DNA from: Bolinopsis microptera
Taxonomy: Eukaryota; Ctenophora; Tentaculata; Lobata; Bolinopsidae
Assembly (NCBI RefSeq): GCF_026151205.1
Contig: NC_087073.1
Span: 3,741,001-3,805,000 of the forward strand
DNA: 64,000 bases
Direction: 5' to 3'
The position numbers and the translations under genes were made by a program. The notes under the pieces were generated by a model. That model saw only the letters and a list, made by a program, of their open reading frames with translations. It did not search any database and had not been told where the DNA came from. The number at the start of each line of letters is the position of its first letter. Positions within the stretch are counted from its first letter, which is position 1. Shown here one piece after another: positions 3,201-62,129 of the stretch.

Positions 3201-6200
3201 AAATTGCAAAATAAATATTGTTGTCTCTTGACACCACTTTGTTTAGGGTTAGACCTGCTAGTTAGAAATTAGAAATTAGAAATTAGAAATTAGAAATTAG
3301 AAATTAGAATGATCATTACAAAATTACATGTGTCAGATCCAAATCAATCAGTTATCAGTTAAATCAGTTATATATACAACTTATGAAGCAATGTATGCCC
3401 TAAAATGCTTTTTTCCCGCGTTGTGGTCTATATAGTAGAACTGAACGTCGGGAAGGACAATTTATACCTTTTTTGCGAGAGAACATGCTTCAGAAGTCTG
3501 TAAGTGTAATACCTTCCAAACAAAATTTAGGAAAATTGACCAATAATACCAACGATTTTCATTTTTTTCCATAAAATAAGAATAAGCCGATTCGGATCGC
3601 GATGGTTTGAGCACGGAGACAATATGCTCTAGCTAGTTGTACCCATGGACCACACATTTCTGCACATGAATCATGCTTGTAGCAAATTAGTTCCCAGAAA
3701 TATTAATAATTTCCTAACCACATAGCAATATGTCAGCTTGAGTTCTGCCACCCACGAATTCATGAAAATGGTTAAACCAAGTTATCGTCTGTTGGCCTCC
3801 ATTTTATTATGGCATCGATCTTGTTCATGCTATAATCAGACAGCTGTGTATGTGAGGTACACAGCTATATGTCTAGATCGCACATAAACGATGCTAGTGA
3901 TTACTTTTGCCGCCCTAACCCCCCTCAACGATTAGTCCTATGAGCTCCCCGGCCCCAAATACCACTAAACCTTTTAAATCGAATACTTAACTTTTACTCT
4001 AAATTTATATCACTTCAATTCTATATCAATCAACTGGTAGTAGCTTCATTGACGCATATCAGCCTACCTCGATACCTGACAGATCAAAGTTGTCGAGGGA
4101 GCAGGACCTGATGAAGAGCGCTATCAGAGTCACATGGTTAACCACATCAGCCCACAGACAAACACTGGGCAGCCTGGCGATGCTCAATACCTTGTCTGAG
4201 GAGTCGAGCTGTGGTTAAGTAGAAGCTCTTGCTGGGTGGCATTATAAATGCTTGTCTGAGTTGTTTTCAGTTCTGATTTTGTGTCAGGACGATACCTTGC
4301 AGTTGCGATTTTAAAATTGAACTTTTTTGTAAAATCAGGTACACAATTTTAAAATTTCCCCAAAAACTAGGCTAGTTTAGTGGAACTTACGTTCCAGGGT
4401 ATATGCGGATATTTCTTTCTTGAGTAGGTACACTCTGCAGAACCACAAGGGGAAAGTGATGTTAACGAGGATAGTTGAGAACCATGTGTCTAACATTTGG
4501 GTGTAGTTCTGTCTGGAGGGGTGTTTGTTTGTGAGAATGTTTGAGAAGTTTTGTTTATAATGAACAATTTACTAGGCTTCAATTTTGCCAACTTACAATG
4601 TCGCGTGTGGCTTCCGCTAGAATATTTGAACTTACGCTAAGTACAGTTCTTAAATATGAAACAGCTCCTCCCCTTTTTACTGCCGTTTGGACTAAGTGCA
4701 TTTTAATGACCAGAGTTTTGCGGTTCCGGAACTGTAGGCCCTGAGAAACTATAGGGCGGCGCCCTACGAAACAGGTCTATAGGGTGTGGAGACTAGAAAA
4801 ACAGTTGTAGTCTAGGGCGGCGACAAAACATTACGGGATTGGAACTTTACCTTATAGTTATGTACTTACTTACTTAAATTTCTTAGTTTGGTTGTCATAT
4901 TTATATATATATTTGAAAGGGAAAAACAGTGATCCCTACATAATTGCTCTTACTCGTTTAATATAATATCATGCATATTGCATGGTTTCGAACCTAAGAT
5001 AATGGCACTTCCTATTCTAGCAACCAGTAACCACATCTTTAATATGTTGAACGTAAATATTCAAATTGACTGTCTCTTGGTTGACCACGAGCTAATTTTC
5101 AAGCTCTTGGCCACTTCGTCGCACAAATTCCAACTTTGGAAACCTAGCTAGAGCATATAATGAGCAGGATTTGTGAAAGTCTGAATTTCTTATTTACATA
5201 CTCTTTGCAATGGGTCATAATATCGTATTGGTTGTTATCTAAATCCGCATTACTCAAACGATAATTTCAACGTCAGATGACACACGAACACTTGAACAAA
5301 TCTCAAATATGATGCTGTGATCGAACAACATTTTTCCAACCCCCACAGAACAATTACTTCACCCTACTGTACGTGTTAGAATGTGAGCTCATTGTACGTA
5401 GCGCGGGGGCTAACATTACTGGATACGAGCCGGAGAGCTGCTAGTGCTACTCAGGCGCAGAATTCCCTGCTAAATAACTCGTCCTCTTCTTACTACTCAA
5501 CCTTATCTTACTGCAGGTTACCTAGTTGTATATTTCCAGAATTATGAGGTGAGTAGAGCTGGAGTCCGAGGTAAGCTCTTCCTTGTCAGCTCGTGGTGTG
5601 GTGAGTTCTGTGTGTATTGTGAAATGTTCCGTGTGTTTTGTGAAATGTTCTGTGTGTTTTGTGAAATGTTCTGTGTGTTTTGTGAAATGTTCTGTGTGTT
5701 TTGTGAAATGTTCTGTGTGTTTTGTGAAATGTTCTGTGTGTTTTGTGAAATGTTCTGTGTGTTTTGTGAAATGTTCTGTGTGTTTGTGAAATGTTCTGTG
5801 TGTTTTGTGAAATGTGGGCTTTCTCTCGTAGTAAACCTCGATGGATGACCTTTTACTACAACCTATATTTTCCGCCCATAATGCATGCATAGCATGATGA
5901 ATGATGATGATTGACTGCTTTGCCGTGTGAAATTCTTTGCTGTTTGAAATAAAAATAAAATATTTTAACTTTTGGAGGATTTGTTTTCTCACAAACTAAA
6001 TTTCACGCCGACCATCCCATGCCTTTTTTCGCTTTGCCCTGTCTAGATTCCTACATCTTAATTTTGATCAGTACGGTTTCTGATTGTATTTATTTTGGTT
6101 GGATCAAAGCACTTACCCTCTTTGATGAGCTGTTCCATACCACATGCCCTCCGCAAGACTCTGAATATACTTGTGCGAACAAAAGTGTTTCTGATCGCAC

Positions 6201-32297: not shown

Positions 32298-33956
32298 ATG
32301 ACTAAGACCAACCGGGTTGTGACTGAAACCCCTTACTTGGATCAAAAACCCGGTACCTCTGGTCTCCGGAAGCCCGTGAAGACGGTTCAGCAGGTCCATT
32401 ACACCGAGAAATTTATCCAGAGCATCCTAGAAACCGTGTGTGAACTTGATCCGTCCAATAGGAAGCTGCTTATCGGGGGAGACGGTAGATATTACAATAA
32501 TGTAGTTATCCCGCTCATTGTGAGAATGGCTGCTGCTAACGGGTTCAAGGAACTGATTATCGGAAAAAAAGGGCTGTTCAGCACACCCGCTTGCTCCGCT
32601 TATATCAGGACCCATAAATGTGTTGGAGGGATCATTCTCACTGCTTCACATAACCCAGGGGGCCCTGACGGAGACTTTGGGATCAAATATAACGTGGCAA
32701 ACGGGGGCCCAGCCCCTGATAACGTGACTAATGCCATATTCCAGAAAACTAAGACTAGATCCTTCTACAACATTCTTGATCCAGTGGATATTTCCATTAG
32801 TAAAATCGGTAGAACAGTACTGGAAACCGACCAGGGTCAGGTTGTGGTGGAGGTAGTTGATGGTGTTGCGTGTCATGAAGAGCTATTAGGAACGATATTT
32901 GATCTACCTAAGATTAAGGATTACCTTCTTCAGAATAACCTGTGCATCACAGCGGACGCCATGGCCGGTGTTATGGGTTCCACTGTACACAGGATATTTG
33001 GAGATATTTTGGGGGTAGACTCCTCCCACTTGATAAGGTGCACTCCTCTGCCTGATTTCGGAGGGAGCCACCCTGATCCTAACTTAGTTTATGCCGCCGA
33101 ATTAGTGACCACAATGGAGTCGGGGAAGTACGAATTTGGGGTGGCATTCGATGGTGACGGTGACAGAAACATGATTCTTGGCAAGAACGGTTTTTTCGTG
33201 TCACCAAGTGATAGCTTGGCTGTCATCACTGCCAACTTGGACTGCATCCCATACTTCGTTGGTAAAACGTTTGCAGGCGTAGGCAGGAGTCTGCCAACAA
33301 GTGGAGCAGTAGATCAAGTGGCTAAGAAACTCGGATTTGCGATCTACGAGACTCCCACGGGTTGGAAGTATTTCGGTAGTCTGATGGATGCTGACATGAT
33401 CTCACTGTGTGGAGAGGAGAGCTTTGGAACAGGAAGTAACCACATTCGTGAGAAGGACGGTATCTGGGCAGCTCTAGCCTGGCTCTCAATTCTAGCTTCT
33501 CGACAGTGCAGTGTGGAAGAGATTATAAGGTCTCACTGGAAAGAATACGGTAGACATTTCTACTGCAGGCACGACTACGAAGCTCTCACCACTGAGCAAG
33601 GAGCTGCCGTTATGGCAGCCGTCAACAACTACACTGCCCCTGACTGCTCATTACCAGCTATGGGGGTCACGGAGGTCATATCCTGTGTGAACTTCTCCTA
33701 CACGGACCCTGTGAACGGGGACCGGGCACTGAACCAAGGGTTTGTTTTCACTTCTGTTACTGGGTCCAGGGTGATTTTCCGTCTGTCCGGCACTGGTTCC
33801 AGTGGGGCTACTATCCGGATTTATCTGGAGTACTACTCTACATCTGAAGTTGATGGAAACGCTCAGGAGATCCTCAGTCCTCTGGTAGAGTTTGCTCTTC
33901 TTGTTAGTGACATCAGAGCTCTTTCGGGGAGAGAGGCTCCGACCGTCATCACGTAG
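32298..33956 (+). CDS. PGM1: Phosphoglucomutase, PGM1 type
   Basis: Interconverts glucose-1-phosphate and glucose-6-phosphate in the cytosol through a phosphoserine enzyme, linking glycogen and UDP-glucose metabolism to glycolysis. The 552 residues are close to the family's usual 560. All active-site loops are present: TASHNPGG with the catalytic Ser at about residue 117, the Mg2+ loop FDGDGDRN with Asp 285/287/289, the sugar-specificity loop GEESFGTGS at about 372, and the phosphate loop RLSGTGSSG at about 495. The ATG lies 7 nt after a TTTTTCAG acceptor ending at 32290, so the coding region is one exon preceded by an intron or trans-splice site. No frame damage or poly(A) tract suggests a processed pseudogene. 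The next plus-strand exon starts about 800 bp downstream. Confidence 0.97.
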   Translation: MTKTNRVVTETPYLDQKPGTSGLRKPVKTVQQVHYTEKFIQSILETVCELDPSNRKLLIGGDGRYYNNVVIPLIVRMAAANGFKELIIGKKGLFSTPACSAYIRTHKCVGGIILTASHNPGGPDGDFGIKYNVANGGPAPDNVTNAIFQKTKTRSFYNILDPVDISISKIGRTVLETDQGQVVVEVVDGVACHEELLGTIFDLPKIKDYLLQNNLCITADAMAGVMGSTVHRIFGDILGVDSSHLIRCTPLPDFGGSHPDPNLVYAAELVTTMESGKYEFGVAFDGDGDRNMILGKNGFFVSPSDSLAVITANLDCIPYFVGKTFAGVGRSLPTSGAVDQVAKKLGFAIYETPTGWKYFGSLMDADMISLCGEESFGTGSNHIREKDGIWAALAWLSILASRQCSVEEIIRSHWKEYGRHFYCRHDYEALTTEQGAAVMAAVNNYTAPDCSLPAMGVTEVISCVNFSYTDPVNGDRALNQGFVFTSVTGSRVIFRLSGTGSSGATIRIYLEYYSTSEVDGNAQEILSPLVEFALLVSDIRALSGREAPTVIT

Positions 33957-46680: not shown

Positions 46681-49600
46681 TTAAAAGGAGATATCCATAC
46701 CTGCAATGATAACGGGTCGTCGAAAATAGTCAGAAGTGTCGTCCTTTGACCCAAACATTATCATATTGCCATTACCAGACGACCAAGTTTCATTACAGTT
46801 CGAAGCAGTGAAGTCAATGTCGATGACTTGTATATCATTACATTCCACCACCATAGATCCATCCAATAAAGAGATCGACCAGCGTTGGCTAAGTGTCTTT
46901 GGAAACGAAGAAGGAAAATACTTCCAAGATGATTGACATATTGACACTATATACCCTGCACCATAGGAATAACTGAAACTTATGTGCAAATATCCTAAAT
47001 GCTTAGAGTCACTAAAGAAATCGATCCACAAGTTTCTATTTTGAGCATTAAGTGGAGTGTTATTTATCACAACAAGGGGCTCAGTCGTGAAGTCGTACTC
47101 GTATTGTTCGTCACTGTCCGGTACTATCCAGCCAGATCTGTTACTTGCAACACAGAGTGGTTCCTCATCGTACAAGAATAAGATGCCACTGTGACATGTT
47201 ACTACTGTGCTTCCTGACATCTGTAATCTAGTAAAGCAGGACACCTCAACTTTGGTACCAGAGGGCACAGGAAACGTCTGAGAAGTTTGTAGATAACTCC
47301 ATGCAGGGGTCAGTCCAGTGCAGCTTCCCTCTGGCAAACATTGAGGAGTCTTAGAAAAGGAGTATATTGTTCCACCCAAGCAAGTTACTTCTGTTGAACC
47401 AAAGAATTTACTATCATCTGGACAATCTTCTGTTATAGTAATTTTAGCTCCAGCTGGTACAGGGAACTCTTCTGCTGTTTCTGCGATTGTTTTCCACAAA
47501 ACAGGAAGTCCAGTGCAACTCTTCGGCGGAGTCTTTCGGTAGAAGTCAATGGGTGAATCATCAGACTCAACCTTGAAGTTGCTTATATCTTGAGACCATA
47601 TATCTGTGCACTTATCGTCTGAAACTTCGCCAAAAACAATGCTAATGACTAGGTCCCCATTACAGAGCAATGTGAATGACTCAGCTGTTTTGATGAACGT
47701 CCAGACTCTACTTGGTGTATTTGGAAGTTGTGAAATATGCCCGTATTTTTTCATACAGGGTTGCAACAGATAACTAGGATTTTCTGCAAATTTAAGTACA
47801 AAAAGTCCGATATCTTTGGATGCTGTGTTAAAGAAGAGTTTGAACTTTGCTGGCACGCATGTAACCTTAGGAGTATTTGTCAGAATCTGAAGAGGTGCCT
47901 CGGTAAAATCAATATCGTACTCTGTCGATTCTTCAGGTTTGAGCCAGCCTTCATCAGTACTTGGTGTACAGAGAGGTTCCTCATCTTGGTAAGTGTAGAA
48001 GATATCACTGTGACACGTGACTTTAGTGCTTCCCGACATCTTAAATCCTTCATCATAACAAGTTACTGTGAGCACAGTACCAGTTGCTACTGGAAACACT
48101 GTACTTGTCTGTAGGTAGTTCCAGCTGGGGTAAAGTCCAGTGCAAGTTCCTTCTGGGATGCATTGAGGAGTTCTTGAAAAAGGGTAGAATGTTCCAGCCA
48201 AGCAAATTACTTCAGTTGAATCGAAGAATTTGCTATTATTTGAACACTTTCCTGTCACTTTAACCTTAGCACCATTTGAAACAGGAAACGTTTCAGTTGT
48301 TTCAGTGAACGTTTTCCATGCGACTGGAAGTTCGTTGCAGTTGTTAGAAGAGAGGATCCGGTAAAAGTCAGAAGAGGTGGAAGAATGACTTTCTTGAAAT
48401 CCGAACTTGGTCGCATCCTGAGACCACTTGTCTTTGCAATTGTCATCAGTAATATCTCTAAAAACAATGTTTATGACTTGGTCGTCATTACAGTACACTG
48501 TGATAGATTCTTCAGTTTTTACAATCGTCCAGACTTTACTTGATGCAACTGGAAGATTTGGAAATATCTTGTAATTCGACACACATTCACAGAACAATAT
48601 CCTGTAAGAAGGTGAGCTGGAGCCTGCTGCAAATTCAATATCTATGTTTCCAATCCTACTTCCTGATTGTGTAGTGAAGTAGATATTCATAGATCTGAGA
48701 GAAGGAGAATCAGTATTATCATTAGGAGTATTACTGAGAATCTGAAGAGTTGCCTCAGTAAAATCAATATCGTACTCGGTCGATTTTTCAGGTTTGAGCC
48801 AGCCTTCATCAGTACTTGGTGTACAGAGAGGTTCCTCATCTTGGTAAGTGTAGAAGATATCACTGTGACATGTGACTTCAGTGCTTCCCGACATCTTAAA
48901 TCCCTCATCATAACAAGTTACTGTGAGCACAGTACCAGTTGCTACTGGAAACACTGTACTTGTCTGTAGGTAGTTCCAGCTGGGGTAAAGTCCAGTGCAA
49001 GTTCCTTCTGGGATGCATTGAGGAGTTCTTGAAAAAGGTGAAAGTGTTCCAGCCAAGCAAATTACCTCAGTTGAATCGAAGAATCTGCTATTACCTGAAC
49101 ACAATCCTTTCACTTCAACCTTAGCACCATTTAAAACTGGAAACGTTCCAGTTGTGAACGTTTTCCATGCGTCGGGAAGTAAAGGACATCCTTCTGACTG
49201 TGGCGGCTGTCGGAAATATTCAACAATGGTCATGGTTTTCGGTGTACTACTAGTGAACTTGACCTTCTTTATTTCAGCAGACCATTTCTCGAAGCAGAAG
49301 TCATTGGGAACGTCTGCATAGACAATGTTGACAACATAAATACCATTGCACAGTATTGTAAAAGACTTCTTGGTGATCACAATTGACCACAATATACTGT
49401 CCTCTGTTGGAAAGTTTGCAAATTCCTCAGGTTTTGGCCGACAGTTAAAAATAACATAGCTAGGAGCTGATGCTAGAGCAATTTGTAACTGCCCAGCCGA
49501 ATTTCCTTTATCATTGCGGAACTCAAGGTACACTTTTTCAGTTGAGGTGCCATTTGGAGTGTTAGTGAGTAAGACTAATGGAGCATTTTCCATATCTATC

Positions 49601-50684
49601 TCGTACTGCTTGTTCTCTATCGGCTTTATCCAACCATTGTCTTCACTTATAGGGCACATCGGCTCTGTGCCGTAGCTGTATAAGGTGCCTGAAAGACATG
49701 TTATTTCCTTACTTCCAGACATCAGGATTCCATCAAAGCAAGTCACCTGTAGTTCAGTGCCACTTGCTACTGGAAACTTTGTATCTGTCTTTAGGAAGCT
49801 CCATCCCGCATAGAGTCCAGTGCACTGCTCTTTGGGTAAGCATTGGGGTGTGTGCGCATAGTTGAAGATGGAACCAGCATAGCACATCAAATCTGTGGAA
49901 CCAAACTTGACTGTTTCTCCTAAGCAGGAGAAGGATACAGACAAAACTGTGTCAGAAGTAACTGGAAAAGATGTATCTGAGTCCGTATTTTGAGGAAAGT
50001 TGGAAGGAAACTTTGTACATTCAGCCTTCGGTGATTGCCTGTACTCATCTTGGTTAGATGAGATAGAAGAGAACCGTATCCCTTTCACGGTTGACCAATT
50101 CTCTTCACAATTCTTTTGCAGTGAATAGACAATATCCACGAGAGGTGTGCCATCTAGATACACAGTCAACGATTCAATCGACTTTACAAATGTCCAGATT
50201 ACAGACTCTGCGTTACTGAATGCAACATCCTCAACAGTGGTTTCAGGCAAACACAGAGCACTTTTGAAGTCTACTTTCTTTTCCTGGAGATAAACTTTAA
50301 TATCAACACCAGACTTTCCTGTGACTAAGTTAATGCCTTCACATGAATCAATACAGTTTTGTTTCACATCAAGAGCATCGTTGTCCATATCAAATTCTAT
50401 AGCCTCGTTCTTCGTGATAGTTGTCCAACCTGTAAATCATTAAATTGGAAACGACGAAACGTCTTTGAATGTGGATCGATTACTGGTAATGCTTGAACTA
50501 TAGCTATACTTACATAATATATCTATATGGAAAAACCTAGGATATATGCAACAATGATGTTATTGATATTTTAAAAGTAAATATTATAAATATGTTGAGT
50601 CAGATGACAGACTTAATACTGATGGTACTTACCGTTAACAGCCGTGAAAGCTATTAAAAGCAGAAACTGCCTATTTAGAAACAT
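46681..50684 (-). CDS. Secreted mosaic protein with five beta-sandwich-like and eight CCP/sushi-like modules
   Basis: Two exons joined in phase: 50684-50633 encodes a signal peptide (MFLNRQFLLLIAFTAV), and 50429-46681 the rest; total 1266 residues. The mature chain is a regular array. Each unit opens with GW (GWTTI, GWIKP, GWLKP twice, GWIVP). About 130 residues follow, marked by W-x-I/F near SxTVYxNG/D and a CxxxW-F pattern. Two four-cysteine modules of about 60 residues then come, reading FPVASGTxLxVTC ... MSGSTxVTC ... PxC, like divergent CCP/sushi domains. Order: five long modules separated by four CCP pairs. The long module resembles Methyltransf_FA/galectin-like sandwiches in layout, but I cannot assign it. 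An extracellular or matrix role is inferred from the signal peptide and cysteines. GCAG/GTATGG before the stop could be a donor to a further exon. Confidence 0.8.
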
Positions 50685-50902: not shown

Positions 50903-51026
50903 TCAAAAATAATTTATTGGTTGAATTTGTGACTGAAGCAACACACAGTACTGAAGGAGCTAGCTAAATCTTGTCCCAGCAACTAACTGTGTTCTTAATA
51001 AAGTACTGTTTGAATCCCAGTAAGTA

Positions 51027-51384
51027 GTGTGAGGGGAAGTTGTGTGAGGGTAAGTTGTGTGAGGGTAAGTTGTGTGAGGGTAAGTAGTGTGAGAGTAAGT
51101 TGTGTGAGGGTAAATTGTGCGAGGGTAAGTTGTGTGAGGGTAAGTTGTGTGAAAGTAAGTTGTGTGAGGGTAAGTTGTGTGAGGGTAAGTTGTGTGAGGG
51201 TAAGTTGTGTGAGGGTAAGTTGTGTGAGGGTAAGTTGTGTGAGGGTAAGTTGTGCGAGGGTAAGTTGTGACTTGTGCGAGGGTAAGTTGTGTGAGGGTAA
51301 GTTGTGTGAGGGTAAGTTGTGTGAGGGTAAGTTGTGTGAGGGTAAGTTGTGTGAGGGTAAGTTGTGTGAGAGTAAGTTGTGTGA
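51027..51384. repeat. 15-bp minisatellite GTGAGGGTAAGTTGT, about 24 units
   Basis: A nearly perfect array with scattered single-base variants (TGCGAGGG, GTGAGAGT) and one 7-base irregularity near 51270. The unit length is a multiple of 3, so both strands stay open and give artefactual Val/Ser/Cys- or Thr/His-rich frames. Each unit contains GTAAGT, the ideal 5' splice site, on the plus strand. Confidence 0.97.
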
Positions 51385-51439
51385 TTTTCAAGCCATGACG
51401 GAGCGGGGGGATTCAACTGTAAGTTGGAGGACGGCATCA

Positions 51440-53580
51440 CCCTATCTGTTCAATGATCCCAATGACATGACATTTTTTAGACCCACCCCATACCACGTGA
51501 AAAATACGTATAATTTATAAACCATAACTCATCTCTCGTCTCATACAAAATATGTTTTGATATAACTTTACACCGTTGCTGAGGCTAATACAATGTTAAT
51601 TCAGAGAGTATAAACGGATTACCAGTCCCAGTCGAAATTCGGCATTTTGGCCGGACAAACTGAGTTTATTTTCTCAATTTTTGCATACTTTTGTTAAATT
51701 TGTTGTCAAATTATTGAATACTATGTCCAGATCGTCCTGGCCCAAATTATATCCATTTACCGTCCGCCGCTATCTGGTCACCGGGAGAGAGGAGCCAACC
51801 ACCCACCCCCTCCCTCCCCCCACCACCTCTCATGTCGGTAAGTGTGATGCCGTCCTTCCCACATACCGCTGATAATCATTCAGCAATCAGCATCATGCCT
51901 TGTTTGGCAGTCAATGAATATTGGAATCCGCCATTTTGAGCTACTTTTTGAGGGAGCCAAGGGTTTAGGACAACTGACAAGTACAACTCGCCCAACTTGC
52001 TTGGAAATTCCTCAATAACCGAATTAATATGGGGGAGGGGCTTTTCAACAATTAATAGGCAAGCTTCCTAACGAACTGCTTGATAATGATTGGGTAACAG
52101 GGCAAAAAAACAACTCGCTCAAATTTGATTCTTATGCTGTGTAGTAGATATATATCTAGTTTATGAATTTACTGCGACTGCAGTAGAATAAACACCTCAG
52201 GAACTGATATTAATCAATAAAAAGCCCCTCCCCGGGGAGGGGCTTTTTATTGAAAAGCCCACAGTTGTTCAGCACATCAGATAAACTTTTCAAATGACGG
52301 TCTATGCTCCCCGCAATTAAATCAACAGTATCTGATTCACCGGGAAAGGCTTAAGGTCATTTAAACGGGATTACAAGAAAAGGCAGCTTACCCGTTACCG
52401 GAACACTGTAGTTGCTTCTCTCCGAGAGCTTCGTTAGTAAGACAGTGAAGAGAAAATGAAAAACAAAATGGGAGAGGCAAGCTCACGAGGTGTTTCGAAT
52501 TGTTGTTCTATTAATATAAACAAACGCGGCGCAGATCGACTGGAGGAGATTGCACTGTGTAGGCTCCGTTGTAATGTGATATGTATGTACTACGGCTTTA
52601 CAAATTTTGGAAGCATGTAGAGATGTAGGGATATATATCTGATACCAATCGTATATATACTAAAAATACTCTAGCACAATTGTAACTGCAGTTTTACAGA
52701 ACTCTAAATGCTTGATGAACCCTCTTGCAGGTACCACCCGTATTCACACTCTGACCTGAGTTTAGTCATTTTCCGATACGAGATTGGGGACGGGTTCTAA
52801 AAACAAACAAACAATATGCCATTTCCTTGTAGCGGAGCATTCCTATTGTTTTATGAAAGATTGTGTGATTAAAGGGACCAGCCAAGAATCTTCTCGTGTA
52901 TAACATACCAAGGAGCATGGCATCGCGGCTGGGGAACTTTCTAAAAGGTACTTGCTAGAGATGGCAATTAACTCATTATTGGACTCAATGCTCTAAGGTT
53001 AATGTTAGACGGGAAAGTAACGAACTTGGAGAATGCTACCATACCCTAGTAAAATAGATTTGACGGATACCTAATCAAACACTCTCAAATCTGATTAACA
53101 CGCACTCAAAAACAGATCGGATTTATTGGTTTATAACATATCAGCCAACTACCTGATAGACTAAGCAACAAGGAGCAAAATAAGTGAAGTAAAATACCAA
53201 TATTATTATCGCAGAGTAATTCTAAGTATAAACCTCGATTCAGTATAATTAAGAAGTCTTGACAAGTACAGAATCTTGATCGAGTAGATTGAGTACTAGG
53301 AACATATTTAAACGGCTGGTCATGGAAAGATCGATATAATGACAGTCGATTAATTTGACTGTCATTGTATATACATACATTCAAACGGGTATATGGCATT
53401 GTCCCATATCACCGTTTAATCGTCACGGTAAACATTATTCGAATCATCTCAGACTCTTTCCCGTTAGATCGGTTAGGGTACAATTCAAATTGACGTTTTG
53501 TTTTGTTTTGAAACCCCACGGTGGAGGTTGGCGTGTGCCGCAATTTATTAATCAATGGTTATTACATAAATGAAATTATA
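51440..53580. other. Repeat-containing intergenic stretch
   Basis: Apart from the MITE-like element at 52.0-52.25 kb I see no gene. Short frames such as 51681-51872 and 53106-53399 lack family features or a splice context. Confidence 0.45.
52026..52260. mobile_element. MITE-like element ending in a perfect 38-bp palindrome
   Basis: GGGGAGGGGCTTTTCAACAA at about 52031 faces its inverted counterpart CAATAAAAAGCCCCTCCCC at 52215-52233. Immediately after, GGGGAGGGGCTTTTTATTG (52234-52252) completes a perfect palindrome. This looks like a roughly 205-bp element with about 14-bp inverted ends, abutting the end of a second copy. Confidence 0.55.
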
Positions 53581-53832
53581 GAAGTCACACTAAAATATAA
53601 TAATGTAAAATAAAATATATTAAAATAAATGCCCTACTAAAAGTAATATATAACTAACGGTCTGCAAAACTGGTTGAAGTCGCAATTTGTAAACATGCTA
53701 ATTACTATTTAATAATAATAGATAAAAAGTTTTGCGCGGCAGATGTAAATTCGGCATTGCATAATGGCAGTGAAATTAAAATGATATGTTGTTGATAAAA
53801 GATCATGGTCATTTGTCGCGAGTGATCTTTCT

Positions 53833-56800
53833 TTACGCGTTGTCGCTTACTAACTCGGTGTTGTAGTCTATCTGCGAGCGCCCTTCTCTTTGAGACTTTC
53901 TTAGCCCAGGTATACTATAAAGTAAGAAATTTGGCCAATTTTCATCGTCTCCTGAGCTTTGCAGCTTGAGGAGTTCGCGCTTAGCTGAATTTTTAAAGAT
54001 TTCAATTGAAAAGGTAGAACTTGGAATAGTTATATCCTTACTTTGTTTTGTAATAGAGAGCATGGGTCCTTTGAAGAAAAGAGTATTTCTAAATGTTGGG
54101 CCGTTGTAAGTTGTGAACCAAGAAAGGTTATGTTCGTATGTGGAATTATAGGTGGGAATATCGTGAGGGAAAAGTTCTTTGATGGATTTAGGGAGAAGGC
54201 TTGGCATGTTCCTTACTTTGTGTAGTAGAATAAGAGCGTTTTTTACAATGACGCTATGGACTGTTAGGATATTATGCAATCTAAACGCACTTTTTGTGTG
54301 CTCCGGGGGATTGCCGTCTTTATATCTATAATTTACATATCCTGACATAACAGCTCTAATTCCCTGCTTTTGCTTGGTGAACAGAGATTCAATGTGACAT
54401 TTTGAGGCAAATCCCCACACTAAAGAACAGAAATTTAGATGGGATTGGATAAGGCTTTGGAAAATGTTTAGGCGGGCTTTGATAGGTAGAAGGTGCTTTA
54501 GCTTATACATAACTCCGAGGTAGCGACCCATCTTTATTCTAACTGCCGTAATGTGTTTTTGCCAAGTGAGCTTTTCGTCTAGGATCACTCCTAAAAATCT
54601 TGCTTCAGTCTTACGTTCGATTACAGTGTTGTCAATGGACAAATTAAAGCCGCTGAAGTCGATTCTTTTTCTAGTGAAAATCATGTAACACGTCTTTTTT
54701 ACATTTAAAGATAGCCCATTAGCACCTACCCAATCTACAAGACGTGAAATTAGCTGATTAGCTTTTAATTGTATTTCTTCTAGGGTGGTTCCACTAATTA
54801 ATATGTTTGCGTCGTCGGCATAAAGGATGAACTTTGCAAAATCACTAATTCCAGGTAGGTCGTTTATATAAATTACAAATAAGAGAGGTCCTAAAATGCT
54901 ACCCTGAGGTACGCCGTAAACTATGGGCATGCTAGAAGAGCAAGTTCCGTTTAAAGTTACGTATTGAGATCGATTACAAAGGTAAGATCTAAACCATTCG
55001 TGCGCGACTCCCCTGATCCCACAATGGTCAAGCTTCTTAAGTAAGGTCTCATGATCAAGCACGTCAAAGGCTTTACTGTAATCGAGCAGGAGCAGTAGGG
55101 AAATTTGTTTCTTATTCAGAGAGTGTAGTATAGAATTTTGGGCATTGAGCAGTGCATGTTCGCACGATCTTCCTGGCCGAAATCCGTATTGATTTTCGAA
55201 AAGAGAATCGTTCTTATCTAAAAATTCTAAAACACGAGCATGCATAAGTTTCTCATAAATTTTCGAGAATGATCCCAAAAGAGAGATCGGCCTATAATTA
55301 GCTACTTCCAATTTTGAACCACCTTTGTGGATAGGAACGACTTTCGCAGTTTTTAGAGCATTTGGGAAGGTACCACTGGAGAACGAACAGTTAATGACAT
55401 TAGCTAGTGCCCTGGTAAAGTTTTCGCAGCTGTTTGCAATTTTCAATGGCTCAATTTTACAATCGAGTGTGGACTTGTTCTTAAGCCCTGATATTATCTT
55501 TTGGACTTCACCGTGTGATGTAGGCTTAAGAAACATCGAGTTACTACACGAAGCCTTAAGAAAATGCTTGAAACCACCTGGGTCAAAGGTTCGACGGGCA
55601 GCGATTTGCCTCTTGATACTGGCTGCAATACCGGAGAAGTAGCCGTTAAATTTCTCAGCGACTGCCAGATCGGAGCTTATAATCGTGCCATCGTCGTCCT
55701 TCAGACGGGTGTGTCCGAACTTTTTTCTGTTACGGTTCAGGAGGCCATTGATAATTTTCCATTGATTTTTAGAGCAGTTTTGGTATTTGTCAAACATTTT
55801 CTTATAGTACTTTTCTTTGGCTAGATTCACATGTTTGTGACAAAACTTTTTCATTTTATCATACGCGTCGCAGTTTTTTTGTGATGGATTTATAGTTTTT
55901 TCAAAAAAAAGTAACTTCTTGCGGTTGCATGCCGCCTCAAGCCAGGGTAAGATCCAAGGCTTTGGGTCAGCTCTTTCGAATTTTCTTCTCGAACTGTCGC
56001 GCTTCAGGGGGTATGCAGTATTGTAGTGTTTCATGTACGTTTGATAGATGGAATTGTATTGTTCATCAGCGCACGTTGAGGAGGTAGCATCATCCCAGGT
56101 CTCACTTACAATAAGCTCTTTGAATTTAGCATGATTAGCTTCGTTAAATACACGGGCCTCTAATTTCAAGCTAGTGTTGTTGTTCTTTACACGTTGACTA
56201 CGGAATCGCTCGTTCAAACTAGGTGTGGCTCCTAAACTAATGGTCGTGCTAACCGCGAGATGATCTGACATATCCAACGTCACGACATTACAACTAATAA
56301 CGTTGGTCACGTGATTAGTATACACGTGATCAATAAGCGTTGCACTGTGGTCAGTTACCCTGGTAGGCTTGGAGACAGTCTGGGCAAACCCATATTTTTC
56401 TAGTAAGCTTATAAGATCCTGGCTGTAAGCGTCGGTATCGTATTTTATAAGATCAATATTTGCATCACCCAGGAAGACTATCTGCTTTCTGGAGTGTCTA
56501 TCAAGACCCCTGAGCACGTTTTCAAACTTTTCAAGGAATTTTTTAGGGCTTGTGGATGGCGAGCGGTAGAAATTTACGATGATTTTTGTCTTATTTCCGT
56601 TTTTAAAATTGTTGATTTTAAGCAATTGAAATTCTCCGCAAGTAACTTCTTCTGGACTCAGATTGAGTTCGAGTTCCTGTATTTTATTGTAATCACAAAC
56701 GCGTTTGTTAACATAGAGCGCAAGACCACCTCCTTTTCCAGATTTACGTGCAGGTTCTTTGATAAAGGGCTCGTAAAACTGTTCGATTTCAATGTCGTTC

Positions 56801-57315
56801 AGACCATTAGGAAGATTAGAAATTTTACAGTTGGTTTCATTGAGGCAGATGAGGTCAAATTTGGAGAATGTTTCTATTTCTTCTCTAAAATTCGAGATAT
56901 TCTTCACGAGTGATCTAACGTTTAACGAAAGTATCTTAATTTCGCGATTGCTAGGGGTCTTGATATTATCAGGGTGTTGGTACTTACAGCTAACCAATAT
57001 CTCCGATATACAATTGTTGAGATCGATTTCGCTGGAATCTATTTCATCAGTAAGTTCGCCTATTTGATTCAGTACGTGAGAACGAATATAGGGGTTAAAA
57101 GTGGGGGTTATTGTATTGTAATTATCATTAAGTTCGTAGGAAGTTACTCTATAGCCAGGTATTAGGTTTAGACAGCATGTAATACAACCAAGATAATCTT
57201 TGAGGCATTTTTTATGAACTGGTTTGTCACATAGAGGACAAATGAAAACATTTCTAGGAGCATAAGACCACCCGAAGCAACTTGAGCATTGTGATTTGAA
57301 ACTAGGTTCAACCAT
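53833..57315 (-). CDS. LINE ORF2: PHD-type finger, AP endonuclease, reverse transcriptase
   Basis: 1160 residues. Residues 10-48 form a C4HC3 PHD-type zinc finger (Cys10, 13, 26, 29, His34, Cys37, 44, 47). Residues about 125-360 are an exonuclease/endonuclease/phosphatase fold with LNVRS (Asn132), LNETN (Glu160), GDANIDL (Asp284, Asn286), IDHVYTN and a final SDH at 350-352; this enzyme nicks target DNA to prime reverse transcription. The reverse transcriptase spans about 655-900: NYRPISLLGSFSKIYEKL, LLLDYSKAFD (Asp745), GVPQGSILGPLLFVIYINDL, LYADD (832-835). All catalytic residues are present. The motifs are CR1/L2-like. No RNase H is seen. The finger probably binds nucleic acid or chromatin; that is inference. 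Confidence 0.97.
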   Translation of the reverse strand: MVEPSFKSQCSSCFGWSYAPRNVFICPLCDKPVHKKCLKDYLGCITCCLNLIPGYRVTSYELNDNYNTITPTFNPYIRSHVLNQIGELTDEIDSSEIDLNNCISEILVSCKYQHPDNIKTPSNREIKILSLNVRSLVKNISNFREEIETFSKFDLICLNETNCKISNLPNGLNDIEIEQFYEPFIKEPARKSGKGGGLALYVNKRVCDYNKIQELELNLSPEEVTCGEFQLLKINNFKNGNKTKIIVNFYRSPSTSPKKFLEKFENVLRGLDRHSRKQIVFLGDANIDLIKYDTDAYSQDLISLLEKYGFAQTVSKPTRVTDHSATLIDHVYTNHVTNVISCNVVTLDMSDHLAVSTTISLGATPSLNERFRSQRVKNNNTSLKLEARVFNEANHAKFKELIVSETWDDATSSTCADEQYNSIYQTYMKHYNTAYPLKRDSSRRKFERADPKPWILPWLEAACNRKKLLFFEKTINPSQKNCDAYDKMKKFCHKHVNLAKEKYYKKMFDKYQNCSKNQWKIINGLLNRNRKKFGHTRLKDDDGTIISSDLAVAEKFNGYFSGIAASIKRQIAARRTFDPGGFKHFLKASCSNSMFLKPTSHGEVQKIISGLKNKSTLDCKIEPLKIANSCENFTRALANVINCSFSSGTFPNALKTAKVVPIHKGGSKLEVANYRPISLLGSFSKIYEKLMHARVLEFLDKNDSLFENQYGFRPGRSCEHALLNAQNSILHSLNKKQISLLLLLDYSKAFDVLDHETLLKKLDHCGIRGVAHEWFRSYLCNRSQYVTLNGTCSSSMPIVYGVPQGSILGPLLFVIYINDLPGISDFAKFILYADDANILISGTTLEEIQLKANQLISRLVDWVGANGLSLNVKKTCYMIFTRKRIDFSGFNLSIDNTVIERKTEARFLGVILDEKLTWQKHITAVRIKMGRYLGVMYKLKHLLPIKARLNIFQSLIQSHLNFCSLVWGFASKCHIESLFTKQKQGIRAVMSGYVNYRYKDGNPPEHTKSAFRLHNILTVHSVIVKNALILLHKVRNMPSLLPKSIKELFPHDIPTYNSTYEHNLSWFTTYNGPTFRNTLFFKGPMLSITKQSKDITIPSSTFSIEIFKNSAKRELLKLQSSGDDENWPNFLLYSIPGLRKSQREGRSQIDYNTELVSDNA

Positions 57316-57831
57316 TGTTCAAGATGTGTAAATACCAGATATCTGTGAATAATTAAGTAAGATATTAAAAAGATAAGAGTGTAAAGTATGGTGTATAGAA
57401 TAGCTTGTACAGTCTAAGAATATGTATAAAATGCTAATGTGTGTGCGTGTGAATGAATGAGGAATAAACTGTGTGCTGAGAAAGCGTAAAGAAGAAAAAG
57501 AAAACTTGTTAGACCTACCTATCAAGAACTATACAGCTCTGTGTGTAGATAGAATCGTAACGTAGTCTACAATATTACAATATTACGATAGCGGTACTGA
57601 TTTCAGAACTATTCTAAAGTGTTTAAAAAGCTCGGGCAAGAATTCTAGTAACTTACGATAAGCTGATAAGAGCACGGGCATGACTATATATTTTTATGCG
57701 AGGGTTTTCATTATAACTATAAGATGTAAGCTATAATCCCTTAAAGATTTTGTAAAAATTTTGTGAAAATTTAGGCGCGGCAAGTATAAGTAGTAGGCTT
57801 GAGTACGGCTTTGTGAGTTTGTATTTAACCG

Positions 57832-59640
57832 TTAGTTACCAGGCAAGAGCGAGACAAACTCCCGCCTTAATGGCCAGTGCTTTCGAACTTTCTCGCTTCG
57901 CATAGAGAGTTTTTGAACACCGGTCACCAGACAGTTAGCTATCTCACTCTTGGGCAGCTGAGTAATGTGAATCCCATTTCCAGATCTATCTAAAATCTCA
58001 AACCCTTTGTTAAATATCACTCTACAAATACGGTGGGAGTCGAAAAACCAAAAGTTACGATTTTCGATCAGACTAAAGTCAAACATGCAGCGGTTAAACA
58101 AATCAACTTCCTTATTTAACCATGCAAATCTCGTTCTAAGAAGGGAGTTGAAAACAAACACTGTTTTTGGGTATCTAGCAAACAAGTAGTTAAAATTGTC
58201 CCTAATTTCACGGGAAAGTGTATAGCTTCTATGGTCATATCTCGACAAATCATTAATACCGGAAGATATAATCACATAATCGCAGTTTTCAAAAAAATTT
58301 TCAAACTTCATTAAGTCCGTGAGTTGGTACATGTCACGCTTTATGACACGAAAGTTAGAGGGGAAAGATGATGGGGTGTTACGTATCATAGAGTCAGTAA
58401 GGTATAGGACAGTCTGTTTGGAGGGTCTCAGGGGGTCGGATGGTGCTATTGACGGTTCATGGATTTTAGGAATGTGCGTGCGCATGGGCTTGTCTATGCG
58501 TCTAAAGGTCACTGACACACGACACGAGGTGACGCCAGGTTCGGGTTGTATCGCATGCTCCCAGAAAAACTGAGACTCTGTGGTCATTGCGTACACTGTG
58601 CCATTACTTAGTTCGTGTTCACGTCGCTCATCAGTGACTAAGTTACGGAAAGTTAAGGTGCGAGTGGCCCCAAAGCTGGCAGTGATGATTTCACCCGTTA
58701 AGCCTGTTTCATTATCCGAGTGAAACGGGATAGAGTCTGAGCCTGTCTGGTATCTAGTGACCATGCAAGTAACGTTATCCCTATTGAAGGTGGGATCGTC
58801 TAATTCCTCAGCTATACAGTCTAGTATCTTATTTACAGCGTGATCAGATGGTGGGTAGGCCTTAGCGCGATGGGTAATACTGCCGTAACTGTATTTACTG
58901 GAGCCGAAGTAAGAGACGTCACGTGATCCTATGCGTTGAAAGTCCAGTCCATCACAAACATTATGCGTTTCAAACTCAAACTTTGATCGCAAACTTCTTA
59001 CCGGAGTAGCTTCTAGTACTTCCTCGTGTCCGGCTGGCGAACCTGTGACGAAGGTTGAGGGATCCGAAGTAGTGTTGGGAGTAGAGTTCCTAGCGACGAG
59101 AGAACTAGAGCTCCTTATCACCTCCTTGTATTCGTCAAGCGTATGTTCGGCTTTTTCCAGCAGCATGCAAAAATCGGAGGTTAGATTATCGTGTATAGTC
59201 TGCTTATCAGTTGGATTTCTGATAAGATGATCATAGTATCTAGAGTCTAGATTTAGCTTTGCTGTCATGTATGGTTTTCGTAGCGTTTTGTTTGTAGATT
59301 TACAGAGTCCGGCACTTAAAGATTCACGATAAAGTTGGTCCGGTGTAAGTGACGGCAGTAGCTCGAGGCAAGTTTCTGGCGTAAAAGTAGGTACCCAAAA
59401 ACCAACAAACTCTGTCTGCGTACTGTGATTTTCGACGTTTATCTTACCTTCAGCTTGAGGGTTTGCCGAGCAGTGTTTTTGATCTGCGGCAGTGGTGGGG
59501 GCACCACTGCCCAGCAACCCCTTTTCAGATGTGTCGCTCTGCGTCGTGGTACTCGAACTAGAGGTAGGGCTGTGGGACTCCAGAGGACTCGAGGGGATCA
59601 AGCTTAGGTTAGTAGGACTCGAACTAAGCTCAGAAGACAT
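57832..59640 (-). CDS. LINE ORF1: AlkB-like dioxygenase fused to SGNH esterase
   Basis: 602 residues. Residues 1-60 are Ser/Thr-rich and probably disordered. Residues about 240-382 match ALKBH2-type Fe(II)/2-oxoglutarate dioxygenases: YGSITHRAKAYP, then RYQTGSDSIPFHSDNE (iron ligands His307, Asp309), SFGATRTLTFRN, WEHAI (His362) and RVSVTFR (Arg374, Arg380, 2-oxoglutarate and substrate contacts). Residues about 410-575 are an SGNH/GDSL hydrolase: LTDSMI (nucleophile Ser417), SSGINDL (Gly461, Asn463) and GNGIHIT (His558). The core catalytic residues of both enzymes are kept, suggesting selection. Esterase ORF1s are known in CR1-like elements; the added dealkylase is the odd part. AlkB enzymes remove methyl adducts from nucleic acids, so protection or repair of the template RNA or cDNA is a plausible role. 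Confidence 0.93.
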   Translation of the reverse strand: MSSELSSSPTNLSLIPSSPLESHSPTSSSSTTTQSDTSEKGLLGSGAPTTAADQKHCSANPQAEGKINVENHSTQTEFVGFWVPTFTPETCLELLPSLTPDQLYRESLSAGLCKSTNKTLRKPYMTAKLNLDSRYYDHLIRNPTDKQTIHDNLTSDFCMLLEKAEHTLDEYKEVIRSSSSLVARNSTPNTTSDPSTFVTGSPAGHEEVLEATPVRSLRSKFEFETHNVCDGLDFQRIGSRDVSYFGSSKYSYGSITHRAKAYPPSDHAVNKILDCIAEELDDPTFNRDNVTCMVTRYQTGSDSIPFHSDNETGLTGEIITASFGATRTLTFRNLVTDERREHELSNGTVYAMTTESQFFWEHAIQPEPGVTSCRVSVTFRRIDKPMRTHIPKIHEPSIAPSDPLRPSKQTVLYLTDSMIRNTPSSFPSNFRVIKRDMYQLTDLMKFENFFENCDYVIISSGINDLSRYDHRSYTLSREIRDNFNYLFARYPKTVFVFNSLLRTRFAWLNKEVDLFNRCMFDFSLIENRNFWFFDSHRICRVIFNKGFEILDRSGNGIHITQLPKSEIANCLVTGVQKLSMRSEKVRKHWPLRREFVSLLPGN

Positions 59641-62129
59641 GGTATAGAGGGTGTAAAAGTAGGTGTAGGATGTAAACTGGTTAACAAGACGTGGCTAAAA
59701 GGCAGGTCAGGCCGCGCGTTATCAGCTTATCAGATTACTATCAGCAGCAACAAAACATTTAGTGAATATTGAAAAATGAAGTGAATATTGAAAAATGACC
59801 ATTGAAAAAGCGTTGAATTATTTAATTATAAGTTCCTATCCTTGGTCTGCTAAACGATAGCCCCTGATTTGAACTCTGTCTTTGAGCTCGAAGAAATTAT
59901 CCACTTTTCTGCTGAACTTTAGGATATGTTACAAGAACTACCCACTGTGCATAATCTCACCTTCCTAACGTTAACCTCTAATGGATCGTTGAGCAGACAA
60001 GGCCCAGGATCGGTCATCGGATTATTTTAAAAATTAGACCTTCTTCAACAAACTTAGCAAATGTGTTTCTCTTTAAAAATAAGGCCAGATAAAATCTATA
60101 CTTTCCCTTCAGACCGTTTAAATTAAATAAAACACGATGATTGATAAAATTTTAAGCAATAAGATAGTTCACCTTTTTTCTGAGTCGGGAATTCTATATA
60201 TCTGGAAGTTACCAAGAATTTTTTAAGTTCATTAAAATCTCTCCAAAACACCTCGTTAAAAACAAGGAATCACTCAGTAACGAGGGAGTATCATTATACC
60301 AATTAAACAAAGATTTCAATTCGATGACAGGCGGGTTGTAAACAAAACTACCCGGCATGAAACATTGGATGCTTGACTATAATATGAAACATCGAATGAT
60401 ATAGAAGTTTTTATCTGACTGAATCAAACGAAATTATCAGACACGCTGCTTAAGAACTGCATCATTAAGAGAATGAAAGGTTATAGAGATCCTGACAACA
60501 CATAACGATATTAAAAACACATAAATTAAACGAAAGACAGTACTTAACGCTACCACCTCTCTCAATTTATTTAGAAAGGTACAAGTTGGTACTTTGAATT
60601 TTGATGCAGCACATTCGACTCAATGAAATTTGAGATCAGCAACGGGTCATGTCTACGCTATCTAACAAGCTACATGGGGAATAGGCTTTTAAATACTAAA
60701 AACTAACGCTCTCTGTTCAGGTCGTTCCAATAACAATGAGATGCCGTAGCACAATACACCACGTATTAGCGCCACACTAACCGCAAATCTGGCGATTAAT
60801 GAAGTAATGGAGGGCTTATCCATCCTGGGGATACGATTAATATGAATATCAATTATAGAGGAGTAGGCATGATGGAGTCTGGGTGCAGGTGATGCGGACG
60901 GTACAATTAAATTTGAAATTAATATTAATTAGCAATTACATGATGAAGAGTGTGGGCACCATGATTTGTGAAAGGGTGAAAGGCGATGGCTCCAAAAAGG
61001 GAGCCCGAAGATAGGGTATTTGAGAGAGATTACCTATAAGGGAGCATGGGTCTTGACCTTGAATGATTTATTTGACAGAGGAGAGTGAGATCTGCCAGAT
61101 ACTTCTCACCATCGCGGTTTAATGGTGGGTCAAAGATCAGCATGATTATTAAGTCTAAATTAATACAGAAGACAAATCTAAATCACAAGCTCGATTTCCT
61201 TTGAGGGAAAGGAAACAGCCACCGCAAATCGGGGTTTGCAGTAAATTGGGGTTTTGACTGTTCACGCTATGTATGGGACATAGGTAGGTCTCTTTTCAAA
61301 CCTATTTTGGCACAATATAATCTGGCGATACAATACGTGAATACGTGAGTTTATTTGGGTTTGAAACGACATGATCTGGGTCCCTACCCTCGCACAAGAT
61401 TATTCTCAATTTTCTTGTTGTGTTCCACAACTATAGAATATGATATTTAATAAAACCTTGTTTTAATAAAACAATAAAAGATGTTGTGTTTTCTAATACA
61501 TTACTATGGAAAATCCTGTATTTTTCAAACTAAGTGGGAAATTAATCACTGACTATTTATGCAAATGGACATTCCGATACTTCTGACCGTGAAATTTGAG
61601 TCTAACTGTTCACACACGAACATTTAAGTAATGTCGTCCCATTCAGTCCAACAATAAATATACAAATGGACTAAACCAAAGCTACTGACAGTACTTACTG
61701 TGAATATAAGAATACTGTCTCTGCTAGTAGCCAGTTGCTCCATTAGGGCAGAGTGAAATACAGAACATGGCATGATGTGCTGGATAGTACATGGCCCAAT
61801 GTGCTGCTACCTCTGGAACCTTATCTCACCCAGGATATCCTCATCACTGAACATTAAACCTTTTTCTTCTTCAGAAAACCGACCTTTTAATATTCATGAG
61901 TGAACATCACATTGAACAATGAAAAAGTACATGGCAACAAAAGAAAGGTGGATGCAGATGGTGCAATAAATGATGAAGATGATTTACAACTTCATTGAAA
62001 GAGAGAAGCTTAAGAGTAAACTATTAAGATTAAATAATTTCATTCTAGAGAAACAACTTGTATTCATTGGTCTCATTAAAAAATATTGATCTTTGACCGA
62101 TGTATGGGCCAAAGACTACTGAATTTCGT

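What the first reader, a model, noticed from the sequence alone, without database searches (positions are those of the whole stretch)
57832..59640. LINE ORF1 fusing an AlkB-type dealkylase to an SGNH esterase
Seen: intact iron-binding HxD...H (His307, Asp309, His362) with two downstream arginines, followed in the same protein by an SGNH block with its Ser, Gly-x-Asn and His. Known: esterase ORF1s occur in CR1-like LINEs, and AlkB domains occur in some RNA viruses and cells for nucleic-acid demethylation. Inference: the retrotransposon has captured an enzyme to repair or strip methylation from its RNA or cDNA, possibly to escape host RNA marking. I am not aware of this exact fusion as a standard LINE architecture.
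Basis: partly seen in the sequence, partly recalled or inferred. Interest (0 to 1): 0.85.

Follow-up and report, generated by a model that had tools for sequence, protein, structure and literature searches.

The report
AlkB demethylase domain in LINE ORF1
A jumping gene of the LINE type carries, in its first protein, an intact-looking copy of an enzyme domain that normally strips methyl groups off DNA and RNA, joined to an esterase-like domain; the same pairing recurs in many mobile-element families of this genome and looks selected for, which suggests these elements clean methyl marks or damage from their own nucleic acids.

Summary
Window 59640..57832 (minus strand) encodes a 602-aa ORF1 with an ALKBH2/3-type Fe(II)/2-oxoglutarate domain (PF13532, E=3.9e-17) followed by a divergent SGNH domain; an EN-RT ORF2 lies downstream. 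The fusion is not confined to this locus: the host genome (264.65 Mb) holds at least 12 related AlkB-SGNH ORF1 families, further types with a PHD-like finger or distant reverse transcriptases, and a Helitron frame. Iron ligands and 2OG arginines are invariant in the 23 element AlkB domains compared; all 23 have Ser where 4 of 4 readable cellular relatives have Asn. Where dS is measurable, both domains are mostly under purifying selection. ORF1 and RT trees conflict, so this ORF1 has moved between LINE lineages. Ten paper searches, several with capped listings, showed no AlkB in a LINE ORF1; the nearest is an orchid Gypsy. Most likely function: removing base methyl lesions from element RNA or cDNA in the RNP (inferred). 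In the window's family the SGNH domain lacks the catalytic Asp and block-II Gly, so esterase activity is doubtful.

The parts
53498..59798 (-). whole LINE copy (5' end near 59798, fuzzy; 3' end near 53498 with a short CAAAA-type tail)
   Evidence: blastn of the window against sister copies: 5' break points at 59751-59798 in 7 copies (L003-L008, L012), 3' break points at 53498-53501 in 3 copies; no shared repeat of 7 bases or more at the two ends
57832..59640 (-). ORF1, 602 aa, AlkB-SGNH fusion
58990..59640 (-). ORF1 N-terminal region (aa 1-217), poorly conserved (mean column identity 29%), no Pfam domain
58489..58989 (-). AlkB-type 2OG-Fe(II) oxygenase domain (aa 218-384); Fe ligands H307 (58720-58722), D309 (58714-58716), H362 (58555-58557); 2OG Arg R374, R380
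57835..58440 (-). SGNH-type hydrolase-like domain (aa 401-602): S417, G461-x-N463, H558; catalytic Asp replaced by Asn555, block-II Gly missing
53833..57315 (-). ORF2, 1160 aa: endonuclease and reverse transcriptase
   Evidence: Pfam RVT_1 4e-34, Exo_endo_phos_2 2.6e-10
57175..57288 (-). C4HC3 (PHD/C1-like) zinc-finger motif at the ORF2 N-terminus (aa 10-47)
   Evidence: sequence; PHD or C1 hits near the ORF2 start of families K, Q, P707 and P676, only that of Q above the curated cut-off; no significant hit in the window copy itself

Best explanation
Shown: the feature is ORF1 of a two-ORF LINE with both frames open, and its AlkB domain is an ALKBH2/3-like member with all Fe(II) ligands and both 2OG arginines. 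It belongs to a large set of AlkB-SGNH ORF1s in this genome that keep these residues and have been exchanged between LINE lineages. Inferred: ORF1p coats or joins the element RNP and the AlkB domain oxidatively removes methyl groups from the Watson-Crick face of bases (m1A/m3C-like) in the element's RNA template or single-stranded cDNA. Such groups would block its own reverse transcriptase, so removing them would raise the yield of full-length copies. The SGNH part probably serves RNP assembly or lipid/membrane contact, as proposed for the ZfL2-1 esterase, and in the window's family may no longer be a good hydrolase.
For: PF13532 hit; ALKBH3 and ALKBH2 are the closest solved relatives by sequence. 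H307, D309, E311, H362, R374 and R380 are invariant in 14 of 14 related ORF1s and in 23 of 23 element AlkB domains compared. Constraint: families M-N AlkB dN/dS 0.19 over 98 codons; between other families AlkB pN is 0.20-0.44 while pS is 0.76-0.89; among 7 family-A copies AlkB has 5 nonsynonymous and 7 synonymous variants (ratio 0.21), among 3 family-B copies 3 and 4 (0.19). An RVT_1 domain lies in 13 of 13 ORF2 frames scanned with Pfam, an endonuclease domain in 11 of them. Acquisition of a demethylase by a retroelement has a tested precedent in orchid Gypsy elements (PMC9289625, abstract and passages).
Against: No biochemistry, expression or localisation data. The Asn that helps bind 2OG in cellular AlkBs (recalled) is Thr in the window's family and in 14 of 23 element domains, and the second such Asn is Ser in 23 of 23, so 2OG binding or substrate may have shifted. 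One recent pair (F1-F2) has AlkB dN/dS 1.06 with 9 changes, and another (C1-C2) 0.60 with 3. PF13532 matched 12 of 14 aligned members, not all; family I matched another 2OG-FeII model weakly instead. Substrate choice rests on homology alone.
Confidence: 0.52

Rival explanations
1. The AlkB domain erases a host regulatory mark (m6A or another mRNA methylation) from element RNA, so that the RNA escapes decay or silencing.
For: Orchid Gypsy elements carry an ALKBH5-like domain with m6A demethylase activity in vitro (PMC9289625). L1 is affected by m6A and ALKBH5, where m6A helps L1 (PMC7873242, search listing and start of abstract only).
Against: The domain is closest to ALKBH3 and ALKBH2; ALKBH5 is not among the solved relatives listed. 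The acidic Glu after HxD, typical of m1A/m3C enzymes (recalled), is invariant in 23 of 23. In L1, m6A promotes retrotransposition (listing).
Confidence: 0.18
2. The domain repairs alkylated DNA: newly made single-stranded cDNA or the nicked target site, rather than RNA.
For: ALKBH2 and ALKBH3 repair DNA (recalled). A Helitron, a DNA transposon that moves through single-stranded DNA (recalled), carries the same type of domain, which fits a DNA substrate common to both element classes.
Against: ORF1 proteins mainly package RNA (recalled). No direct test.
Confidence: 0.2
3. The domain is kept as an RNA- or DNA-binding fold without catalysis, giving the esterase-type ORF1 the nucleic-acid binding that it otherwise lacks.
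For: Esterase ORF1s in RepBase had no RRM or other structural RNA-binding domain (PMC3905857, section 13 read). Both 2OG-contacting Asn positions are changed in the window's family.
Against: Iron ligands and 2OG arginines are invariant in 23 of 23, which a pure binding role would not require.
Confidence: 0.1

Closest known systems
Type IV (esterase) ORF1 of CR1/L2 LINEs; ZfL2-1 ORF1p (Schneider 2013, PMC3905857; Metcalfe and Casane 2014, PMC4120745)
   Same: SGNH domain in ORF1, EN-RT ORF2 downstream; exchange of ORF1 types between lineages was already proposed (PMC4120745, passages)
   Different: An AlkB domain precedes the SGNH domain. The full-text counts for 'alkb' and 'dioxygenase' are 0 in both papers; I read passages of both and one section of the first. 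In the window's family the catalytic Asp and block-II Gly are lost.
Orchid Ty3/Gypsy elements with a 2-ODD/AlkB ORF (PMC9289625, abstract and passages)
   Same: A retroelement encodes an AlkB-superfamily domain; there shown to demethylate m6A RNA in vitro
   Different: LTR element, separate ORF, ALKBH5-like domain, plant; here a LINE ORF1 with an ALKBH2/3-like domain followed by SGNH
Cellular ALKBH3 / ALKBH2
   Same: Closest solved homologues; the host and bacterial AlkBs compared share Fe ligands, Glu after HxD and, where readable, the 2OG arginines
   Different: Element domains have Ser for Asn in the R-x-N motif (23 of 23) and often Thr for the 2OG-contacting Asn (14 of 23); fused to SGNH
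AlkB domains of plant positive-strand RNA viruses (recalled; PMC2714080 seen in search listings only)
   Same: RNA-based replicon with an AlkB domain
   Different: Viral replicase polyprotein, not a LINE ORF1 (recalled)
Fish Texim SGNH genes mobilised by Helitrons (PMC4021074, abstract and passages)
   Same: SGNH protein associated with a Helitron, related to CR1-encoded esterases
   Different: Separate gene next to the Helitron, and 'alkb' does not occur in the paper (count 0); here SGNH and AlkB share a frame with a Helitron-associated domain

Membership tests
AlkB / ALKBH 2OG-Fe(II) oxygenases (PF13532) | profile match above curated cut-off | tested here: met
   63.5 bits against cut-off 31.2
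AlkB / ALKBH 2OG-Fe(II) oxygenases (PF13532) | HxD...H iron ligands and R-x5-R | tested here: met
   H307, D309, H362, R374, R380; 23 of 23 element domains compared
AlkB / ALKBH 2OG-Fe(II) oxygenases (PF13532) | Asn residues contacting 2OG (positions recalled from E. coli AlkB N120, N206) | tested here: not met
   T295 and S376 in the window; first site Asn in 8 of 23 elements, second site Ser in 23 of 23. Not essential in every member (FTO has Ser at the second, recalled)
AlkB / ALKBH 2OG-Fe(II) oxygenases (PF13532) | oxidative demethylase activity | not testable with these tools
   needs enzymology
SGNH/GDSL hydrolase | Ser, block-III GxN, His | tested here: met
   S417, G461-x-N463, H558, invariant in 14 of 14
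SGNH/GDSL hydrolase | block-II oxyanion Gly and Asp three residues before His | tested here: not met
   window: no Gly between S417 and G461, Asn555 for Asp; the Asp is present in families I-Q and in the R and P types, not in A-F (read)
SGNH/GDSL hydrolase | profile match | tested here: inconclusive
   none for the window protein; 11 of 14 aligned ORF1s at E<=1, best 3.5e-6, scores seen are below the curated cut-off; PDB profile 2.2e-4
LINE (non-LTR retrotransposon) | ORF2 with endonuclease and RT, dispersed 5'-truncated copies | tested here: met
LINE (non-LTR retrotransposon) | target-site duplication | tested here: inconclusive
   no shared repeat of 7 bases or more at the window copy's ends
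CR1 or L2 clade | RT places inside the clade in a reference tree | not tested
   no reference RTs were available; CR1/L2-like is said from general RT/EN make-up and the esterase ORF1 (recalled)
Type IV (esterase) ORF1 | SGNH domain preceded by a coiled coil | tested here: inconclusive
   SGNH present; no coiled-coil prediction was run

The most novel reading that the evidence does not exclude
AlkB-SGNH is a general 'toolkit' ORF1 of the mobile elements of this genome (probably a ctenophore): one AlkB capture, marked by a shared Asn-to-Ser change, was passed between deeply different LINE reverse-transcriptase lineages and into Helitrons, and works as an element-encoded base eraser that protects replication intermediates from methylation.
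Probability: 0.42. Interest if true: 0.88.

Novelty: new variant of a known kind. Interest (0 to 1): 0.74.

Why it matters
If the domain is active, retrotransposons carry their own nucleic-acid demethylase as a standard part of the RNP. It would make testable whether base methylation (m1A/m3C damage or marks) limits retrotransposition. It would also give esterase-type ORF1s, which had no RNA-binding domain in the published set, a nucleic-acid-facing domain, and show an enzyme module shared by LINEs and Helitrons.

Tried and rejected
Rejected: 'confined to one locus' (73 matches in the own genome, 73 of 876 candidates scored). Rejected: 'neutral decay'. Considered: two separate AlkB captures. 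A first tree put the distant-RT type X with cellular AlkBs; without the incomplete Variovorax row all 23 element domains fell on one side, support 81/60, neither shown nor rejected; the shared Ser favours one origin. Dropped rows: bac_Variovorax (incomplete); families J and X from the RT tree (long branches); family C has no RT row because no long ORF2 frame was found in the stretch fetched; types R611, P692, P749, X777 and the Helitron have no ORF2 row because none was fetched. The family-C line is invalid (copies of unequal length were not aligned); the within-A step failed and was redone. Led nowhere: viral contigs with four queries and prokaryote genomes, both found by short peptide patterns only; Rfam. 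Plasmids gave 44 records under 60% identity, none covering 80% of the query; the 20 rows shown match the AlkB part (one group of three runs on to aa 436). Phages gave 10 distant matches to an element AlkB domain. No eukaryotic collection was available, so presence in other animals is untested. A wider census with the 551-aa type could not be made.

Full report
OBSERVATION. ORF1 is window 59640..57832 on the minus strand, 602 aa. Pfam gives 2OG-FeII_Oxy_2 at aa 248-380, E=3.9e-17. phmmer against solved structures gives ALKBH3 first (about 3e-8) and ALKBH2 next; a profile of 12 relatives raises this to 1.7e-26 and 1.9e-21. ORF2 (57315..53833) has endonuclease and RVT_1 domains. The SGNH part has no hit in the window protein itself. 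It is supported by relatives: of 14 aligned ORF1s, 11 match Lipase_GDSL_2 at E<=1, best 3.5e-6, every Lipase_GDSL score I saw being under Pfam's cut-off, and a profile of 12 rows finds GDSL hydrolases in the PDB at 2.2e-4. PF13532 matched 12 of the 14; family I matched the related PF03171 weakly instead.

ELEMENT. Sister copies break off at window 59751-59798 on the 5' side (7 copies) and at 53498-53501 on the 3' side (3 copies), so the element is about 6.3 kb with a short CAAAA-type tail. No shared repeat of 7 bases or more was found at the two ends of the window copy. In the own genome the ORF1 query gave 73 matches (73 of 876 candidates scored). Seven of these, the window's included, span aa 1-602 at 98-100% identity with no stop. 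The ORF2 query gave 42 matches (40 of 6867 candidates scored).

NOT ONE LOCUS. Searches (ORF1 query; SGNH part; 150 matches, 150 of 238 candidates scored) showed further families; (another SGNH part) gave 104 matches, 149 of 149 scored. I fetched representatives. Of the 17 stretches, 15 have an AlkB match by tblastn and 2 (L045, L046) have SGNH without AlkB. Twelve families, which I call A (window) to F and I to Q, carry AlkB followed by SGNH over nearly the whole length at 24-44% identity to the window protein. In 14 of 14 aligned rows H307, D309, E311, H362, R374, R380, S417, G461, N463, D464 and H558 are invariant. A family search for PF13532 reported 151 matches, each listed row over the cut-off, with only 150 of 587 candidates scored, so it is a lower bound. 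Fourteen of these places were fetched. Two look by eye like host ALKBH2 (L063) and ALKBH3 (L064) genes; orthology was not tested. The rest show further types: R type (L065, L071, L074: AlkB then SGNH); PHD-AlkB-SGNH (L069, L070, L072, L073; PHD hits below cut-off); type X (L067, L068, AlkB first; for L067 an SGNH hit in the C-terminal piece seen in L081, below cut-off); a Helitron (L075/L082: SGNH, AlkB and DUF6570 in one frame, Helitron_like_N and PIF1 in the frame that enters the next, overlapping stretch); L066, whose AlkB pairs with the Helitron's; and L076, one AlkB-SGNH frame behind what looks by eye like a Penelope-type RT. The five other frames above 2,000 aa were not fetched.

ORF2 PARTNERS. 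RVT_1 was found in 13 of 13 ORF2 frames scanned with Pfam: window A; D, E, J, M, F, K, Q; P707, R551, R646, P676 and X. An endonuclease hit (E<=0.01) was found in 11 of the 13, not in P676 and X. Families B, I and L gave RT matches by phmmer. The downstream stretch fetched for family C held only a 568-aa frame, which was not scanned.

SELECTION. Between families dS is mostly saturated (AlkB pS 0.76-0.89) while AlkB pN is 0.20-0.44. The one pair at middle distance, M-N, has dN/dS 0.19 for AlkB (98 codons, N being a partial frame) and 0.07 for SGNH (158 codons, dS 1.3). Among 7 intact family-A copies the variants are 5 nonsynonymous to 7 synonymous in AlkB (ratio 0.21), 7 to 4 in SGNH (0.46), and 10 to 1 in the N-terminal part (3.13); among 3 family-B copies 3 to 4 in AlkB (0.19) and 5 to 5 in SGNH (0.27). 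Recent pairs: AlkB 0.11 (B1-B2), 0.23 (E1-E2); against the reading, 1.06 (F1-F2, 9 changes) and 0.60 (C1-C2, 3 changes). Counts are small in recent pairs.

ACTIVE SITES. Over 23 element AlkB domains (19 from LINE types A-Q, R and P, 2 from X, 2 of Helitron type), iron ligands, E311, Y297 and both arginines are invariant. At the position of S376 all 23 have Ser; the 4 cellular rows that can be read have Asn, the fifth being incomplete. At T295 the elements have Thr in 14, Asn in 8 and Ser in 1, and 5 of 5 cellular rows have Asn. That these Asn contact 2OG, and that an acidic residue after HxD marks m1A/m3C enzymes, is recalled. In the SGNH domain of the window's family Asn555 stands for the catalytic Asp and there is no Gly between S417 and G461; families I-Q, R and P keep the Asp, families A-F do not (read). 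The ZfL2-1 triad and oxyanion residues used for comparison come from PMC3905857 (passages).

TREES. The AlkB tree of 28 rows put 19 LINE and 2 Helitron-type domains on one side of a branch (100/99) and X with cellular AlkBs. Without the incomplete Variovorax row all 23 element domains are on one side at 81/60, not starred. So one origin is favoured by the shared Ser but not proven; whether the Helitron domain is nested among the LINE ones is not decided either (p-AU 0.185 against LINE alone as a clade). For 14 families with both parts, AlkB+SGNH groups A, B, D, E, F (100/97) apart from I, K, L, M, Q (100/99), whereas RT groups D with M (99/97) and then A (94/95). Forcing the ORF1 groups on the RT data is rejected (p-AU 2.6e-4 and 1.1e-5), and forcing A, D, M together on ORF1 is rejected (2.6e-55). 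These groups were named after seeing trees. Family J has an ORF1 about 65% identical to family I in AlkB and SGNH but an ORF2 only 25-26% identical to those of A, D, M. The same downstream DNA lies next to it in 3 of 3 further copies looked at. ORF1 has therefore been exchanged between LINE lineages, as PMC4120745 proposed for other ORF1 types (passages).

HOST. Contigs C1-C13 sum to about 258.07 Mb, 97.5% of 264.65 Mb (lengths, added by hand). The published ctenophore Bolinopsis microptera assembly is 265 Mb with 13 chromosome-scale scaffolds holding 97.23% of bases (PMC10232365 and PMC11797021, passages). This is a size match only; the contig number differs (232 here, 346 there) and the species was not tested.

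MECHANISM. Shown: domains, residues, constraint, spread. Inferred: ORF1p joins the RNP and the AlkB domain clears base methylation that would stop reverse transcription. ALKBH3-type enzymes act on single-stranded nucleic acid (recalled), which suits RNA, cDNA and the single strand of a Helitron. Rivals are m6A erasure, DNA repair, and a binding-only role.

NOVELTY. Ten full-text searches of an open-access library listed no paper on AlkB in a LINE ORF1. Some listings were capped (20 of 29 papers, 20 of 1,437, 10 of 647, 10 of 11), and for most papers I saw the listing only. The one retroelement with an AlkB domain that I found was the orchid Gypsy (PMC9289625, abstract and passages).

Noticed in passing
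L075 (C10:16870000-16879999) and L082 (C10:16879900-16886400): Helitron open frame of 3388 aa (length) with SGNH, AlkB and DUF6570, then Helitron_like_N and PIF1 helicase; five other AlkB-bearing frames above 2,000 aa are listed but were not fetched.
   Followed up: partly
L045 (C1:18538900-18542000) and L062 (C8:8269450-8272800): Two long single frames (981 and 1019 aa) with weak helicase hits and a LINE-type SGNH domain near the C-terminus; in L045 the catalytic Asn and His positions read His and Tyr by eye, which looks like a host gene that took over a LINE domain.
   Followed up: partly
L057 (C7:16151700-16155700), L086-L088: Family J joins an ORF1 of the common type to an ORF2 only about 25% identical to those of its ORF1 relatives; same downstream DNA in 3 of 3 further copies.
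   Followed up: yes
L076 (C12:12222800-12226800): AlkB-SGNH frame continuous with an upstream RT that looks Penelope-like by eye; one copy seen, may be a chance insertion in frame.
   Followed up: no
L046 (C1:15502900-15505000): SGNH frame (255 aa in the stretch fetched) with no AlkB match in about 1.4 kb upstream; truncated copy, AlkB-less family or host gene.
   Followed up: no
window 46681-50388, minus strand: 1235-aa open frame with Sushi hits and repeated modules without a Pfam name; looks like a secreted or surface host protein.
   Followed up: partly
window 50964-51520 and 5522-5992: Short tandem repeats that stay open on one or both strands (TTYPH-type and HTEHFTK-type peptides).
   Followed up: no
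family A ORF1 aa 1-217: 10 nonsynonymous to 1 synonymous variants among 7 recent copies: relaxed or diversifying N-terminus while the AlkB part is constrained.
   Followed up: no
window 32298-33956, plus strand: Phosphoglucomutase frame of 552 aa without visible introns.
   Followed up: no
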